This document shows positions 4,555-48,201 of a DNA stretch of 50,019 nucleotides, in pieces. Position numbers and translations under genes: made by a program. The DNA is from Chloroflexota bacterium. GTDB lineage: Bacteria > Chloroflexota > UBA11872. The notes beneath the pieces are model-generated. The model searched no databases. It had not been told where the DNA came from and was given only the letters and a program-made list of their open reading frames with translations. Location of the stretch: NCBI GenBank assembly GCA_028874315.1, contig JAPPKM010000069.1:1-50019 (forward strand), read 5' to 3'. Positions within the stretch are counted from its first letter, which is position 1; each line of letters starts with the position of its first letter.

Positions 4555-4630
4555 GGGCTGGTAGCTCAGTTGGCAGAGCAGCGGACTTTTAATCCGAAGG
4601 TCGTGGGTTCGAGACCCACCCGGCCCACCA
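4555..4630 (+). tRNA. tRNA-Lys (UUU)
   Basis: A complete cloverleaf of 76 nt with encoded CCA. The acceptor stem pairs GGGCTGG with CCGGCCC. The D arm is GCTCAGTTGGCAGAGC, the anticodon loop is CTTTTAA with anticodon TTT, and the T arm has GGTTCGAGACC. The first anticodon-stem pair (27-43) is G-A; all other stems pair. Confidence 0.97.
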
Positions 4631-25065: not shown

Positions 25066-26235
25066 CTAGAGCGGTTCTGTCCCCACGATCAGTTCGGCTA
25101 AGTACCGATCGTAGGCAAATAGCCTGTTACGACGCCGCCCTGTCAATTCGCTGGCGATACCAAGCTGGACGAGCAAGCGCATCGCTGCAGAGGCTCCAGA
25201 GAACGAAAGGCCGGTTCCTTCAGCCACGCTGGCGAGAGTTTGGACAGGCTGCGCCTTCATGGCCTCATGCACCCGAATGGCAGAACTGGCGCGCCGACCC
25301 ACCGCTTCGATTCTTGCGCGATCGGCGCGGAACATTCGTTCCAGCCGTTCCACAGAGGCGGCCGCCTCAGTGGCGACGTGCCGGATACCTTCCAGGTAGA
25401 ACGCCAGCCATGCTTCCCAGTCTCCCGTGCGCCGAACCAGATCCAGCAGGTCGTAGTAGGCCTCGCGATGCTGCTTGAAGTACAGACTGAGGTAGAGCAG
25501 CGGCTCGCGCAGGGCGCCTCCGTGGTGGAGCAGGAATGTAATGAGGAGGCGCCCAACCCGCCCGTTGCCGTCGAGGAAGGGGTGAATGGTCTCGAACTGG
25601 ACGTGCGCCAACCCCGCTCGCACCACGAGCGGCAAGCCGTCGTTGTCCGCGTGTAAGAACCGCTCGAACGCCGTCATGCAGTCGGGAACGTGGGTATGAG
25701 GTGGCGGCACGAAGCGCGCATTCCCCGGTCGCGTTCCTCCGATCCAGTTCTGCGAGCGCCGAAATTCACCGGGATCCTTGTCGCTGCCGCGCCCACGCGC
25801 GAGCAATACGCCATGGATTTCGCGCAGCAGCCGGTTCGAGAGCGGGAAGTCGCCGCGCAGCCGCGCCAGGCCGTGTTCGAGTGCCGCCACATAGTTGGAC
25901 ACCTCGACGAGATCCAAGTCGTTTTGCGGCACGCCCGGTGCCTGTTCCAGTTCGAACAGCAGCAGGTCCGACAGCGAGGACTGCGTGCCCTCGATCTGCG
26001 AAGAGAGCACGGCCTCCTTGCGGACGTAGCTGTAGATGAACAGGTCAGGGTCTGGCAGTAGCGTTGAAATGCTGTCCAGCCGCCCCAGGGCAAGCAGCGC
26101 ACGCTCCAAGGCCTGCTGGAGTGTTCCGTCGATCTCCAGCGGCGGATCCGGCGGCAGCGGCATGGGCACGAAAGCCTCGATGCGCTCGCTGCCGCCGGTC
26201 GTGACGTGGTATCGACCGGTGATGCCGCGCTTCAT
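25066..26235 (-). CDS. Fic family protein with C-terminal winged-helix domain
   Basis: A 389-residue Fic protein. The catalytic loop HPFLDGNGRVGR runs from 218 to 229 and has all residues for AMP transfer from ATP to a hydroxyl side chain. An inhibitory helix motif, SSQIEGT (78-84), lies before the Fic fold, giving class II autoinhibition through its Glu. The last ~65 residues (VQTLASVAEGTGLSFSGASAAM and on) form a winged helix of the type that binds DNA. I chose the ATG at 26235 because the upstream part (to 26385) reads into the AT-rich control region and has no domain pattern. Such proteins often control their own promoter. The target is unknown. Confidence 0.9.
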   Translation of the reverse strand: MKRGITGRYHVTTGGSERIEAFVPMPLPPDPPLEIDGTLQQALERALLALGRLDSISTLLPDPDLFIYSYVRKEAVLSSQIEGTQSSLSDLLLFELEQAPGVPQNDLDLVEVSNYVAALEHGLARLRGDFPLSNRLLREIHGVLLARGRGSDKDPGEFRRSQNWIGGTRPGNARFVPPPHTHVPDCMTAFERFLHADNDGLPLVVRAGLAHVQFETIHPFLDGNGRVGRLLITFLLHHGGALREPLLYLSLYFKQHREAYYDLLDLVRRTGDWEAWLAFYLEGIRHVATEAAASVERLERMFRADRARIEAVGRRASSAIRVHEAMKAQPVQTLASVAEGTGLSFSGASAAMRLLVQLGIASELTGRRRNRLFAYDRYLAELIVGTEPL

Positions 26236-26284
26236 GTCCAGATCGTCTGCCCGATATTGCGCAACGCGGAATAATGCGTTTGGG

Positions 26285-26401
26285 TATTGTGAGTTTCGCT
26301 TGAAATCACAATAACACCCCCGGTGGATCCTCTGGGCTTGGGCGACGCTTGCTGGCCCCTTGTTACGCAAATCGAAATAACGCAATCCGCTATTGTGATT
26401 T
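26285..26401. repeat. Three copies of an 8-bp motif (TATTGTGA) upstream of the Fic gene
   Basis: TATTGTGA occurs at 26285-26292, as its complement TCACAATA at 26306-26313, and again at 26391-26398. The first two make a perfect inverted repeat with a 13-base spacer; the last two extend to 11 bp (AAATCACAATA at 26303-26313 and TATTGTGATTT at 26391-26401). The region 26255-26440 is unusually AT-rich for this chromosome. It lies 50-166 bases before the Fic start and 202 or more bases before the plus-strand GH172 gene. An operator for the Fic winged helix is an inference. Confidence 0.6.
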
Positions 26402-26602
26402 TAGACCTAAAACTGAATAACGGTCACTCATCGAATGGATTTGGTCGGACTCTGGCATGCCGCCAATCGGCCGGCGACCCATGTCAACTCGGGCAAATGG
26501 GGTCTTCACCCGCTCCTGCATCTGGGGCAGCCGAAACTCGCGGCCCAACGCCCGGCAGGCTCACAATAGACACCGTCGCCAGCCGCACCAGGAATCCTCA
26601 CC

Positions 26603-27721
26603 ATGACCATCTTCAACGGCCTCAATCTTCACCTCGGCAACCTCTCCCGTCTCTCCTCGGCCCAATCCCGCTCCATCTCCGCCGAAAACCCGCGTGGCGA
26701 ACGCGGCGGCGGCGCCAGGGCCGAAGCCGATCCCAATGGCCCATCCCGCCACCTGGGCCGCGGCTGGAAGTGCCGCCCCGCCGTGTCAGTGGAGCCCGGC
26801 CAGACCCTCGAGATGGCCGACATCCCGGGCCCCGGCGCAATTCAAAGCATCTGGATCACCGGCTCCGTCTCTCGCAACCTGATCCTGCGGATGTATTGGG
26901 ACGACCAGCCGCAGCCCGCCGTCGACGTGCCGCTGCCCGACTTCTTCGCCGTGCCCTGGGCAACCCACGAGGGAGACCTGAAGGACCACTTCGCTCAGGT
27001 CACCGCCCTGCCCATCGCAGTCAACCCCGGCTGCGGCCTGAACTGCTTCTGGCAGATGCCATTCCGCCGGCACTGCCGCATCACGCTCGAAAACCAGCAC
27101 CCCGCCGAACCGCAGCGCTGCTTCTACCAGGTCAACTACACCCTCACCGACGTACCGGACGACGCCGCCTACTTCCACGCCCAGTTCCGGCGAACCAACC
27201 CCGTGCCGTACGGCGAGGAGTACACCATCGTCGAGGGCATCCGCGGCCGTGGCCACTACGTCGGCACCTCCCTTGGCTGGGGCGTGCTGGACGACCGCTG
27301 GTGGGGCGAAGGCGAGATCAAGTTCTTCATCGATGGTGACGACGAGTTTCCGACCATTTGCGGAACGGGAACCGAGGACTACGTCGGCGGCTCCTACGAC
27401 TGGCGCGTGGCCGGCCAATACCGCACCTACACCACCCCGTTCCTGGGCATGCACCAGGTCATCAGGCCCGACGGGCACATGCGCAACAAGCACCGCCACG
27501 CCATGTACCGATTCCACGTCCTCGACCCGATCCGGTTCCAGAGTGACCTCCGCGTCACCATCCAGGACCTCGGCTTCCACCCCGACCGCGACTTCGACGG
27601 CAAGGGCAAACTATTCATGGCCCGCCAGGACGACATCTGCTCCGTCGCCTACTGGTACCAGGCCCTGCCCACCGCGCCGTTTCCCGAGTTGCCCGACCGG
27701 ATGTTCCTGACTCTGCCGTGA
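26603..27721 (+). CDS. GH172 glycoside hydrolase (DUF2961 family)
   Basis: A 372-residue protein of the DUF2961 family, now glycoside hydrolase family GH172, whose founding members act on difructose dianhydride or arabinofuranose-containing glycans. The domain covers nearly the full length. Conserved blocks are GAIQSIWITG near the start, VPLPDFFAVPW, the acidic EGEIKFFIDGDDEFP and the CGTGTEDYVGGSYDW segment that carries likely catalytic Glu/Asp. There is no signal peptide, so it is probably cytoplasmic and acts on short sugars after uptake. The 201 bases just upstream (26402-26602) show no clear feature. Confidence 0.88.
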   Translation: MTIFNGLNLHLGNLSRLSSAQSRSISAENPRGERGGGARAEADPNGPSRHLGRGWKCRPAVSVEPGQTLEMADIPGPGAIQSIWITGSVSRNLILRMYWDDQPQPAVDVPLPDFFAVPWATHEGDLKDHFAQVTALPIAVNPGCGLNCFWQMPFRRHCRITLENQHPAEPQRCFYQVNYTLTDVPDDAAYFHAQFRRTNPVPYGEEYTIVEGIRGRGHYVGTSLGWGVLDDRWWGEGEIKFFIDGDDEFPTICGTGTEDYVGGSYDWRVAGQYRTYTTPFLGMHQVIRPDGHMRNKHRHAMYRFHVLDPIRFQSDLRVTIQDLGFHPDRDFDGKGKLFMARQDDICSVAYWYQALPTAPFPELPDRMFLTLP

Positions 27722-29191: not shown

Positions 29192-29336
29192 CGCACGGCG
29201 CCCGCGCTCACGGCTGTAACGCGGATCGGGTGCCTCGGGCGTGAAATCAGACGGCTCGTATCATGGCCATCCACCCCTCGCTCGATCTGAAATATCCAGC
29301 AGTCGTCTGCCGGCCGCTGCCCGGGAAACGCTACGA

Positions 29337-29678
29337 ATGAACACTGCCACTGAAACAACCGTTGACGTCGAACTCAAGTACGACGCTGCCGGCCTGGTTC
29401 CCGCCATCTGTCAGGACAACGCTACCGGCGACATCCTGATGCTCGGGTACATGAACAGCGAGGCCTTCAACCGCACGCTGAACTCCGGCACCGTCTGGTT
29501 CTACAGCCGCAGCCGTCGGGAACTCTGGAACAAGGGTTCAACTTCCGGTAACTACCTCCAGGTCGTTGACCTCGTGGTTGACTGCGACCGCGATGCGCTC
29601 CTGGTGCGGGTCAACCCGGCGGGCCCGACCTGTCACATGGGCGTGCGGTCGTGCTTCCACAATCCGATCGACGTTTGA
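29337..29678 (+). CDS. hisI: Phosphoribosyl-AMP cyclohydrolase
   Basis: A 113-residue enzyme of histidine synthesis that opens the purine ring of phosphoribosyl-AMP. The metal site is formed by DCDRDAL and the CHMGVRSC segment; the conserved GYMNSEAF, WFYSRSRRELWNKG and GPTCH are all present. The length equals free HisI proteins, without a HisE fusion. ATG 29337 fits the family start. No other his gene lies in the window. The next gene begins 40 bases on, in the same direction. Confidence 0.96.
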   Translation: MNTATETTVDVELKYDAAGLVPAICQDNATGDILMLGYMNSEAFNRTLNSGTVWFYSRSRRELWNKGSTSGNYLQVVDLVVDCDRDALLVRVNPAGPTCHMGVRSCFHNPIDV

Positions 29679-29718
29679 TGCGGATTCGGACCCGGGAAAC
29701 GCCGCCGGCCTAACCGCG

Positions 29719-30288
29719 ATGACTGACCTCGTGAGGGCTCACCTGAGCGACCTGGGCCGGCAGATCGCCGCCCTCTCATCCGCCGACATTGAGCCCTTGG
29801 CTTCCGCCGTGGAAGCCGCCTGGGCTGCCGACCGCACGGTCTTTGTCGCGGGCAACGGCGGAAGTGCGGCCACCGCGTCACACTTCGCCACCGACCTGTC
29901 GAAGACCACAATCGCCAATCCACCCGGGGCACGAGGAATCCGCGCGGTAGCTCTTACCGACAGTCCCGGGCTACTGACCGCCTGGGCCAACGACCACGCG
30001 TTCGAGCACGTCTTCGCGGAGCAACTTCGCAACCTGGCCCGACGCGACGACCTCTTCATCGCCATCAGCACCAGCGGTGAGTCGCCCAACCTTCTGGCGG
30101 CAGTTACCGCCGCCGACCAGTCAGGAGTGCGTAGCCTTGCGCTCGCCCCGCCGGCATCCACGCTGGCGCGACGCGCCGAAGTCGTGGTTCCCATCGAAGC
30201 CGAGTCCATTCAGATCGCCGAGGACCTCCACCACATCGTCTGCCACGCCGTCACCCTGCATATCGCGGCCGTCCTCGCAGCTACCTAG
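29719..30288 (+). CDS. gmhA: Sedoheptulose 7-phosphate isomerase
   Basis: A 189-residue SIS-domain enzyme that converts sedoheptulose 7-phosphate to D-glycero-D-manno-heptose 7-phosphate. The GNGGSAATASHFATDLSK block and the later ISTSGESPN are the sugar-phosphate sites of GmhA; the C-terminal EAESIQIAEDLHHIVCH carries the family catalytic His/Glu region. ATG 29719 is preceded by CCGGCC and is the first sensible start. It is followed by the kinase of the same pathway, which supports the assignment. Confidence 0.93.
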   Translation: MTDLVRAHLSDLGRQIAALSSADIEPLASAVEAAWAADRTVFVAGNGGSAATASHFATDLSKTTIANPPGARGIRAVALTDSPGLLTAWANDHAFEHVFAEQLRNLARRDDLFIAISTSGESPNLLAAVTAADQSGVRSLALAPPASTLARRAEVVVPIEAESIQIAEDLHHIVCHAVTLHIAAVLAAT

Positions 30289-30350
30289 TCGTGGCAGCTA
30301 GCGCCGCTGCGCTCGGGTTGATCGATCGCACGGCCCGTCGATAGCTCTCC

Positions 30351-31328
30351 ATGATCGTCACCCAGACGCCCCTCCGCCTCAGCTTCTTCGGCGGCGGCAC
30401 CGACTTCCCCGACTACTACCGAGTCGACGGCGGGACCGTACTCAGTACCGCCATCGACAAGTACGTCTACGTCATCGTCAAGGAACGCTTCGACGACGAC
30501 ATCTACATCAACTACTCCATCAAGGAGATCGTCCAGTCGGTCGCTGCGATCCGCCACGACCTCGTGCGCGAGGCCATGCGGACGACCGGCGTGGACCGGG
30601 GAATCGAAATCACCACACTGGCCGACGTTCCCAGCACCGGAACCGGCCTGGGGTCGTCCGCTGCCGTGACCGTCGGCCTGTTGCATGCGCTGCACACCTA
30701 TAGTGGGCAGCTGGTGGACGCCCGTGTCCTTGCCGAGCAGGCCTGCCACATCGAATTGGAGATCCTGGACCGACCGATCGGCAAGCAAGATCAGTACATC
30801 TCGGCCTTTGGCGGCCTGCGCGCCATTGACTTTCATCCCAACCACAGCATTCACGTGGAGCGCGTCCGGGCAGCCCCAGCCACCCTTGCCCGACTCCAGA
30901 ACCGACTCCTGGTTTTTTTCACGGGCCGCACCCGCTCATCGTCCGCGATCCTCAACCACCAGCAACGGCGCATTGAGCAATCTCGAGCCGACCTCGACCG
31001 CCTGAAGTCCTGCGCGCACGAAGCTCGCGATCTGCTCGTGTCAGGCCGCCTGGACGAGTTCGGCGAGCTGCTCGACACGGCCTGGCGCCACAAGAAGACG
31101 CTCGCCGAGGGCGTCTCGGACTCCGCCATCGACGAGTTGTACACGCGGGCCCGCGCCGCCGGCGCCCTGGGCGGAAAAATCGCCGGGGCGGGCGGCGGCG
31201 GCTTCCTCGTCTTCTACGTGCCTCCACCTTCGCAGGACCACGTTCGCCAGGCGCTGGCGCCGTTGCGTGAGCTCCCTGTCGCCTTCGACCCCGGCGGCGC
31301 CCGCGTCGTGTTCAACATCCACCGCTAG
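30351..31328 (+). CDS. hddA: D-glycero-D-manno-heptose 7-phosphate kinase (GHMP type)
   Basis: A 325-residue GHMP kinase. The N-terminal substrate strand is RLSFFGGGTDFPDYY, typical of the HddA branch that phosphorylates C1 of the heptose 7-phosphate in the alpha configuration. The ATP loop is PSTGTGLGSSAAV, and the third motif is KIAGAGGGGFLVFY. GDP-heptose made this way serves S-layer and capsule glycans, unlike the HldE route to ADP-heptose for lipopolysaccharide. It follows gmhA with a 62-base gap. No gmhB or hddC gene is in the window. Confidence 0.9.
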   Translation: MIVTQTPLRLSFFGGGTDFPDYYRVDGGTVLSTAIDKYVYVIVKERFDDDIYINYSIKEIVQSVAAIRHDLVREAMRTTGVDRGIEITTLADVPSTGTGLGSSAAVTVGLLHALHTYSGQLVDARVLAEQACHIELEILDRPIGKQDQYISAFGGLRAIDFHPNHSIHVERVRAAPATLARLQNRLLVFFTGRTRSSSAILNHQQRRIEQSRADLDRLKSCAHEARDLLVSGRLDEFGELLDTAWRHKKTLAEGVSDSAIDELYTRARAAGALGGKIAGAGGGGFLVFYVPPPSQDHVRQALAPLRELPVAFDPGGARVVFNIHR

Positions 31329-32540: not shown

Positions 32541-33680
32541 CTACGAGCGAACGGTCGCCGTCGTTGGCTCCACCGGCACGGGCAGCTCGTGTCCGGCAAC
32601 CGACGGATAGCGCTGAAATAACTCGCCCCACCGCCCCTTCAGCGCGTGCCGAACTCGACCCCGTCCGATCGCGTTGTACCAGTACACGTCGTGATACAAC
32701 CGCGACGCCGCGTAGGACCACGGTGCGATAACCGTCCGCAGCAGCAGTCTCTCCAGGCGTTTGAGCGGGCCCCAGTAGATGGCCTTCTGGCCACGGCTCG
32801 CCAGCGTGTCCTGCCGGACCGCCACCTGCCACCGCACCGCGTCGATATCCGTGCCAACCACCTCGATCTCGCGAGCGTCCGCCGTTCCCAGGCCTGCCTC
32901 GTGCGCCATGCGCAAATACGGAATCTCGAACGGATCCAATCCCATCAGCCGCGCGCTCGTGGCGTCCACGGCCACCTGGTCGGCGCCCGCCAGCATCAGA
33001 TTCCGCTCATACACCTTCATGCAGCGTGGCCCCGCCCCTTCGCCCGCGAACGTGCCGTCGATCACCGCGAACACGCCGGGGTGGATCTCCTTCTGGATCA
33101 TCAACAGATCCACCAGCGTCTCGTGAATCGTCGCGTGGCAGTAGTGCCGCTTCTCGAACAGCAGCCCCCCGAACGCGTTCTTCATCGCGCCGGTAATCGT
33201 CGTGAACACGTGCGTCTTCACCGTTGGCAGGTGGATGATGTTGGCGCCGATAAGTCGCCGTGGAATGCGCACGCCCTCCGGATACACCTCGTGCAGTGTC
33301 CGCAGCCGGCCCTTTGGTTCATAGCGAACCCAGGCCTCGTCCTCGTACAGGTGAATGTTGCGCAGGCCGTGCGCCGTAACCACCGGCAGATGCTTGTTCG
33401 TGCGCTCGCCCACGCGCGCGTTCACGGTCACCGTGCGGTTGTGGGCGGCGAAGAGAGATTCGGAGTCGAACCCGTCGGCGTTTAGTTTTCGGATCACCCC
33501 GTCCAGTTGCCAGGGCGTCGTTGAGCAAGCGGGGTACCAGTGATGCCACGAAACGTTGACCTTGAGCGCCGTCGCTGCCCCGCGATCGAGCGCCGCCGTG
33601 TAGCCGGCGGCCTCCATGGCCCGGCCCACGTCGTCCAGCACGGTGTCTGGCGTGGTCTGGATGAGCGCAACGCGAGCCAT
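32541..33680 (-). CDS. DUF362 domain protein
   Basis: A 379-residue soluble protein with the DUF362 fold: KVNVSWHHWYPACSTTP early, LPTVKTHVFTTITGAMKN in the middle and GADQVAVDATSARLMGLDP late. The function of DUF362 is unsettled; some members carry ferredoxin domains and occur with anaerobic redox systems, but this one has no CxxCxxC cluster motif. It is convergent with the epimerase gene and divergent from the Gfo/Idh/MocA gene, separated from the latter by 130 bases. Confidence 0.8.
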   Translation of the reverse strand: MARVALIQTTPDTVLDDVGRAMEAAGYTAALDRGAATALKVNVSWHHWYPACSTTPWQLDGVIRKLNADGFDSESLFAAHNRTVTVNARVGERTNKHLPVVTAHGLRNIHLYEDEAWVRYEPKGRLRTLHEVYPEGVRIPRRLIGANIIHLPTVKTHVFTTITGAMKNAFGGLLFEKRHYCHATIHETLVDLLMIQKEIHPGVFAVIDGTFAGEGAGPRCMKVYERNLMLAGADQVAVDATSARLMGLDPFEIPYLRMAHEAGLGTADAREIEVVGTDIDAVRWQVAVRQDTLASRGQKAIYWGPLKRLERLLLRTVIAPWSYAASRLYHDVYWYNAIGRGRVRHALKGRWGELFQRYPSVAGHELPVPVEPTTATVRS

Positions 33681-48127: not shown

Positions 48128-48201
48128 GCGGGGATAGTTGAGTGGTACAACATGGGCTTCCCAAGCCTAAAACGCGGGTTCGATTCCCGTTCCCCGCTCC
48201 A
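48128..48201 (+). tRNA. tRNA-Gly (CCC)
   Basis: A 74-nt tRNA with encoded CCA. The acceptor stem pairs GCGGGGA with TCCCCGC, the D arm is GTTGAGTGGTACAAC, the anticodon loop is TTCCCAA with anticodon CCC, and the T arm is CGGGTTCGATTCCCG. The discriminator base is T. One G-T pair lies in the anticodon stem. Confidence 0.96.

What the first reader, a model, noticed from the sequence alone, without database searches (positions are those of the whole stretch)
26235..26440. AT-rich control region with three TATTGTGA copies before a self-regulating Fic gene
Seen: TATTGTGA at 26285 and 26391 and its complement at 26306, the last two extended to a perfect 11-bp match, within an AT-rich patch otherwise rare here. 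Known: class II Fic proteins with a C-terminal winged helix can bind their own promoter. Inferred: the repeats are the operator, and Fic activity and transcription are linked. The site may also control the plus-strand GH172 gene.
Basis: partly seen in the sequence, partly recalled or inferred. Interest (0 to 1): 0.55.

Follow-up and report, generated by a model that had tools for sequence, protein, structure and literature searches.

The report
Fic toxin gene's private self-control switch
Next to a bacterial Fic toxin-enzyme gene lies a patterned DNA switch that the Fic protein itself very probably reads; related Fic genes in many bacteria carry a switch of the same layout but with different letters, and those letters go with one amino acid in the protein's DNA-reading helix.

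Summary
In detail: TATTGTGA at 26285, 26391 and (reverse) 26306, plus a fourth at 26561, against 0.22 expected. With up to 3 mismatches the 29-bp palindrome occurs at only two places in the 3.34-Mb genome, both here. It is one version of a wider pattern: many SoFic-type Fic genes carry upstream half-sites A> <B C> <D (TATT-N21/22-AATA-N11-TATT-N11/12-AATA). Direct repeats at the A-to-C spacing of 41 occur in 56 of 147 loci against 4.6 expected. Inner letters match within a gene but differ between genes, and covary with the Fic winged-helix recognition helix, above all residue 346: proline goes with A at letter 6 in 34 of 38 loci, other residues in 12 of 43; held-out 7 of 8. So Fic itself very probably reads this operator, most likely as an autorepressor, as shown for CccR. 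GH172 control is not supported. The geometry was found in 72 of 160 loci, not all. Autoregulation is known; the fixed architecture, drifting letters and residue-346 rule appear new. No binding was tested.

The parts
25066..26235 (-). Fic gene (389 aa, Fic_N + Fic + C-terminal winged helix; SoFic-type, class II inhibitory motif SSQIEG at 78-83, Fic motif HPFLDGNGRVGR at 218-229)
   Evidence: motifs read from the sequence
25087..25290 (-). DNA for the winged helix (residues 316-383)
   Evidence: AlphaFold model pLDDT 92, secondary structure
25198..25200 (-). codon of Ser346, second residue of the recognition helix; best single predictor of operator letters 5 and 6
26303..26313 (-). proximal operator, half-site A (TATTGTGATTT)
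26285..26295 (+). proximal operator, half-site B (TATTGTGAGTT read on +)
26263..26273 (-). proximal operator, half-site C (TATTCCGCGTT; core kept, inner letters weak)
26255..26265 (+). proximal operator, half-site D (core TATT read on +, 11 bases beyond C)
   Evidence: sequence; spacing class
26409..26419 (-). distal operator copy, half-site A' (TATTCAGTTTT)
26391..26401 (+). distal operator copy, half-site B' (TATTGTGATTT)
26369..26379 (-). distal operator copy, half-site C' (TATTTCGATTT)
26361..26371 (+). distal operator copy, half-site D' (degenerate, TGTT core)
   Evidence: sequence
26398..26427 (-). sigma-70-like promoter on the Fic strand (GTGACC-18-TAAAAT), overlapping distal half-sites A' and B'
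   Evidence: consensus scan only, 9 of 12; shuffles mean 0.2
26561..26568 (-). fourth TATTGTGA copy; probably the GH172 -10 region (CACAATA), not operator
26603..27721 (+). divergent GH172 (DUF2961) gene, next to the Fic gene in all 11 genus loci examined

Best explanation
This is the operator of the Fic gene, bound by the Fic protein itself. The C-terminal winged helix reads half-sites of the form TATTnnnnn placed as A> <B C> <D just upstream of the start codon; in this genus the whole unit is present twice, about 106-108 bp apart. The TATT core is shared by many family members, while letters 5-9 are private to each gene and are set largely by the recognition helix, residue 346 above all. Bound protein covers the promoter and start region and most likely represses the gene (negative autoregulation), keeping a toxic AMP-transferase low. 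Shown by computation: element, architecture, locus-specific letters, covariation with the recognition helix. Inferred: binding, repression, relief on loss of free protein, and any coupling to enzyme activity.
For: Geometry against shuffles: direct repeats at 41 in 56 of 147, at 31 in 35 of 147 (null 4.6 and 5.1). Core score 11 or more in 39 of 147 against 0.2 expected, and 1/143, 0/140, 0/101, 1/147, 0/145 in other stretches of the same loci. Locus-specific inner letters: A-B 4.08 of 6 within, 2.17 cross, largest of 2000 permutations 2.82. Covariation: of all 12-residue windows over 389 residues the recognition helix is best (partial r 0.42; largest of 300 max-over-window permutations 0.33), residue 346 r 0.62, next 0.29 (40 loci). 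Over 81 loci: P346 with A6 34/38 against 12/43; A346 with T6 15/17 against 13/64; held-out P346 7/8 against 4/12, Fisher 0.028. The model places the recognition helix at 345-357 independently. Within the window's genus, 6 loci with P346 have A6 in 36 of 36 half-sites and 5 loci with S346 in 6 of 30. No regulon at 3 mismatches: 2 places in the genome. Precedent: CccR represses its own promoter through palindromes (PMC9755527).
Against: 88 of 160 loci did not reach p 0.02 with this geometry, and 50 of 70 held-out loci did not. In the 81-locus set, which includes out-of-register loci, the window statistic is weaker: best partial r 0.226, equal to the largest of 500 permutations. Shared ancestry is only partly removed: on a tree without the winged helix, 6 well-supported independent pairs give 4.7 same way, 0.1 opposite, median p 0.0625. 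Held-out A346 with T6 is 3 of 4 (Fisher 0.1). In the window itself half-sites C and D keep little but the core. The promoter position is a weak consensus match. Repression rather than activation is by analogy.
Confidence: 0.85

Rival explanations
1. The repeats are the operator of another regulator (not Fic) that controls Fic, or both Fic and GH172.
For: GH172 is the divergent neighbour in all 11 genus loci, and the second operator unit is seen in this genus but not in L017 or L036-L041.
Against: Operator letters covary with the Fic recognition helix and residue 346. The operator stays with Fic where the neighbour differs. No other site in the genome at 3 mismatches.
Confidence: 0.07
2. The inverted repeats act as RNA: a hairpin or alternative hairpins (A-B or B-C) in the fic leader, e.g. 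attenuation.
For: A-B arms pair and covary between loci, as a stem would; A and B can both lie in the leader if transcription starts at the distal promoter-like site.
Against: Rfam has no family here. Direct repeats at 40/41 and 30/31 are not needed for hairpins, and a stem would not track a protein helix.
Confidence: 0.04
3. Fic binds the sites but as an activator, or the sites mainly serve as an allosteric ligand that sets the AMPylating or deAMPylating state of the enzyme.
For: DNA stimulates CbFic2 activity and dimerisation (PMC10628234); the EcSofic C-terminal domain is needed for toxicity (PMC12249575).
Against: The nearest tested case, CccR, is a repressor (PMC9755527); 6 of the 31 operator loci with a promoter-like hit have the -10 box starting 3 bases before half-site A.
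Confidence: 0.12

Closest known systems
CccR of Yersinia pseudotuberculosis (Nat Commun 2022, PMC9755527; abstract, section 9, part 1 of section 10 and passages read)
   Same: Class II Fic domain plus C-terminal HTH; represses its own promoter by binding inverted repeats; footprint, gel shift, ITC and reporter shown there.
   Different: Two 10-bp arms with a 26-bp spacer reported, not four half-sites; a secreted T6SS effector. No letter rule reported in the sections read.
SoFic defence proteins, e.g. EcSofic (IJMS 2025, PMC12249575; abstract, Results section and passages read)
   Same: Same domain plan; PADLOC SoFic model E 3e-112; E. coli fic loci show ATGTCGAT half-sites with shared distances such as 40, 11 and 19.
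   Different: NCBIfam SoFic equivalog cut-off not met by the window protein (140.7 of 550 bits). The paper has no hit for 'DNA-binding' or 'HTH' and gives the C-terminal domain a role in toxicity.
CbFic2 of Coxiella burnetii (Commun Biol 2023, PMC10628234; abstract, section 13, part 1 of section 16 and passages read)
   Same: Class II Fic with C-terminal winged HTH that binds DNA and changes activity with DNA.
   Different: Random DNA used, specific site unknown; states that DNA binding by SoFic had not been shown.
Phd-Doc type toxin-antitoxin autoregulation (NAR 2026, PMC13034048; search listing only)
   Same: Fic-fold toxin gene with an autoregulated promoter.
   Different: There a separate antitoxin is the DNA binder (recalled); here the DNA-binding domain is fused to the Fic domain.

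Membership tests
SoFic-type Fic (PADLOC SoFic) | Fic_N and Fic domains | tested here: met
   PF13784 E 7e-26, PF02661 E 4e-19; PADLOC SoFic E 3e-112
SoFic-type Fic (PADLOC SoFic) | C-terminal winged HTH, SoFic fold | tested here: met
   AlphaFold model; Foldseek 3eqx_B TM 0.77, 7cb8_A TM 0.85
SoFic-type Fic (PADLOC SoFic) | Catalytic Fic motif and class II inhibitory motif | tested here: met
   HPFLDGNGRVGR 218-229 and SSQIEG 78-83 read from P0001
NCBIfam NF046030 SoFic equivalog | Score over the curated cut-off of 550 bits | tested here: not met
   140.7 bits; relative, not equivalog
SoFic anti-phage defence system | Protection against phage | not testable with these tools
   no assay
CccR-like Fic autorepressor | Inverted repeats in own promoter region | tested here: met
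CccR-like Fic autorepressor | Two arms with 26-bp spacer | tested here: not met
   four half-sites with 21/22, 11 and 11/12 between cores
CccR-like Fic autorepressor | The Fic protein binds the repeats and represses | not testable with these tools
   covariation supports binding; no experiment

The most novel reading that the evidence does not exclude
Many SoFic-type toxins carry a private operator read through a simple recognition code whose key letter is set by residue 346 (proline: A at letter 6; alanine: T,T at 5-6; serine: T or C at 6), on a fixed four-half-site scaffold shared by many phyla. The private letters insulate co-resident Fic paralogues and let a newly acquired copy fire in a cell that lacks its repressor; operator-bound protein is also the enzymatic off-state, so operator copies (two here) set the trigger point.
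Probability: 0.3. Interest if true: 0.82.

Novelty: new variant of a known kind. Interest (0 to 1): 0.64.

Why it matters
The role of the winged helix in SoFic-type Fic proteins is open: the CbFic2 authors write that DNA binding by SoFic had not been shown and that a specific binding sequence would be of special interest for CbFic2. The half-sites here give sequences to test at once, including for E. coli fic (a match in 278 of 5426 E. coli genomes). A one-residue rule that predicts operator letters would explain how a self-limiting toxin can spread between hosts and be re-addressed without losing its own brake.

Tried and rejected
Exact TATTGTGA in orthologues: exact copies in 5 of 42 loci, all in the window's genus, and scattered one-mismatch hits elsewhere; it would have refuted the finding had layout not been examined. 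Best generic inverted repeat per locus: weak, 25 of 81 at p 0.05, loops mixed; replaced by the geometry tests. The 54 viral stretches with TATTGTGA-N12-14-TCACAATA: none gave a P0001-like hit at 1e-5, so the palindrome alone is not a marker. GH172 control: rejected as above. Opposite-strand scan as a control: 14 of 147; not a clean control because the site is palindromic. Promoter position: 31 of 81 operator loci have a hit, 6 share one offset, the rest scatter; left open. Partial correlation for letters 7-9: no clear single column. Literature searches, all in open PMC papers; nothing seen there on a SoFic operator, but most subscription papers are not held.

Rows dropped: L001, L005, L006 (same locus as L002) and L143 (same contig stretch as L017); loci with too little upstream or many N (161 to 160); 159 regions to 147 by 8-mer overlap; proteins 90% or more identical. 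One search used 49 TATT-register loci of the 72, then 40; one search used all 81 operator loci. One search examined 8 of 13 SoFic-proper loci, chosen because they share the helix AKRQ; the other 5 (L327-L331) show other words by eye, not tested statistically.

Full report
What is there. The Fic gene runs on the minus strand, 25066-26235, with an ATG at 26233-26235; its 389 residues hold Fic_N and Fic domains, match the PADLOC SoFic model (E 3e-112) and fold like SoFic and a Mycobacterium marinum Fic protein, with a C-terminal winged helix. It is a relative rather than an NCBI SoFic equivalog (140.7 bits against a cut-off of 550). The window's genome is in the Chloroflexota: locus L017, from a genome of the same class, is the same contig stretch as L143, titled Chloroflexi.

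The observation. Together they mark two palindromes of the same size, 26285-26313 (perfect cores) and 26391-26419 (3 mismatches), and the 3.34-Mb assembly has no other at that stringency. The assembly is 86.6% complete, so a missing site cannot be excluded.

Letters change, layout stays. In the 11 genus loci and beyond, the stretch upstream of the orthologous start keeps TATT-N21/22-AATA-N11-TATT while the inner letters differ: GTGATT here, CAGACT in L011-L016, AAACGA in L037/L038, CAAG in L041. In this genus the unit is doubled, 106-108 bp apart. I then collected 161 orthologous loci from whole genomes and from named genomes of many phyla. Without assuming TATT, inverted and direct 8-mer pairs show sharp distance peaks: direct 41 (56 of 147 loci; null 4.6, max 10), 40 (22), 31 (35; null 5.1), 30 (20), which fit four half-sites A> <B C> <D. 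Searching only for the cores, 39 of 147 loci score 11 or 12 of 12 against 0.2 in shuffles and 0 to 1 per control stretch of the same loci. In those 39 the inner six letters agree within a locus far more than across loci (4.08 against 2.17). By a letter-free self-similarity test 72 of 160 loci pass p 0.02; 37 of 78 named loci pass, in 12 phyla (names from record titles, many of them MAGs). Eighty-eight of 160 do not pass; some of these show other repeat spacings by eye (L018-L024).

Who reads it. I compared half-site similarity with protein similarity in every 12-residue window, after removing whole-protein identity. With 40 loci in register the best windows lie in 343-357 (partial r up to 0.42; permutation maximum 0.33), and residue 346 alone gives 0.62 against 0.29 for the next column. 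The structure model, made separately, puts the recognition helix at 345-357. I wrote the rules down before fetching more loci: P346 with A at letter 6, A346 with T,T, S346 not A. On 20 held-out operator loci P346 gives A in 7 of 8 and other residues in 4 of 12 (Fisher 0.028); A346 gives T at letter 6 in 3 of 4 (0.1, not significant); no S346 locus was among them. Over all 81: 34 of 38 against 12 of 43, and 15 of 17 against 13 of 64. With all 81 loci, out-of-register ones included, the window statistic is weaker (0.226, equal to the permutation maximum) but residue 346 remains the top column for letters 5 and 6. On a tree built without the winged helix, residue 346 (P or not) changes at least 14 times and letter 6 at least 18; six well-supported independent pairs run 4.7 same way, 0.1 opposite (median p 0.0625, underpowered); of the 97 control columns, the printed part of the output shows none as concordant, but the output was cut. 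Within the window's genus the switch is plain: P346 loci have A at letter 6 in 36 of 36 half-sites, S346 loci in 6 of 30, though this is one or few evolutionary events.

Extension to SoFic proper. Enterobacterial and rhizobial SoFic genes that share the helix AKRQ carry the word ATGTCGAT; in L324 and L325 it lies at -98>, -77<, -58>, -47<, -27>, distances 21, 40, 30, 19, 11, the same layout with other letters. E. coli strain KFu021 (L332), whose last residues equal the crystallised chain 9vjc over the part printed, has the word at -118<, -99>, -59>, -48<, -29>, with copies recurring about every 70 bp. This part was a scan of 8 chosen loci without a null.

Mechanism. Most likely the Fic dimer or tetramer binds its four half-sites over its own promoter and represses itself. 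Shown elsewhere: CccR, a Fic+HTH protein, represses its own promoter through inverted repeats (PMC9755527). Inferred here: binding, direction, and relief when the protein is lost or diluted. Co-resident paralogues have different letters (L012 and L102 in G007, L010 and L103 in G010), which fits insulation. CbFic2 changes activity on DNA, so enzyme and operator may be coupled, untested.

GH172. It is the divergent neighbour in 11 of 11 genus loci and was not found in the other 7 close loci examined. The fourth copy at 26561 keeps CACAATA in L011-L014 (CAGAATA in L015, L016) where the Fic letters are CAG, so it does not follow Fic letters beyond a single late change and resembles a -10 box; L015 and L016 are the one point that could be read the other way. 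The distal unit occurs only with GH172 in the loci examined, so a minor role there is not excluded.

Literature status. Eight searches of open PMC papers showed no description of this architecture or of the residue-346 rule; subscription papers are mostly not held.

Noticed in passing
window 26561-26568 and 26603-27721: A conserved CACAATA about 35 nt before the GH172 (DUF2961) start in the genus; probably its -10 box. GH172 and Fic are divergent neighbours in all 11 genus loci examined.
   Followed up: partly
L018-L024, L102-L104 upstream of the Fic homologue: Arrays of CCATAT...AATATGG repeats, apparently a different operator type of a Fic subfamily with helix AANRL.
   Followed up: partly
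L334 (E. coli EC554) 2484 onward: A second Fic family gene lies directly behind fic.
   Followed up: no
L332-L334 upstream of E. coli fic: Operator words recur about every 70 bp, with TTTTTTAAACAT runs in each unit.
   Followed up: partly
window 29241-31328: HisI-type cyclohydrolase, an overlapping SIS-like ORF and a GHMP kinase in a row, perhaps a sugar-nucleotide cluster (for the first and last; SIS by eye).
   Followed up: no
window 32541-33680: DUF362 protein on the minus strand.
   Followed up: no
window 4555-4630 and 48128-48201: tRNA-Lys (TTT) and tRNA-Gly (CCC) genes, both on the plus strand.
   Followed up: no
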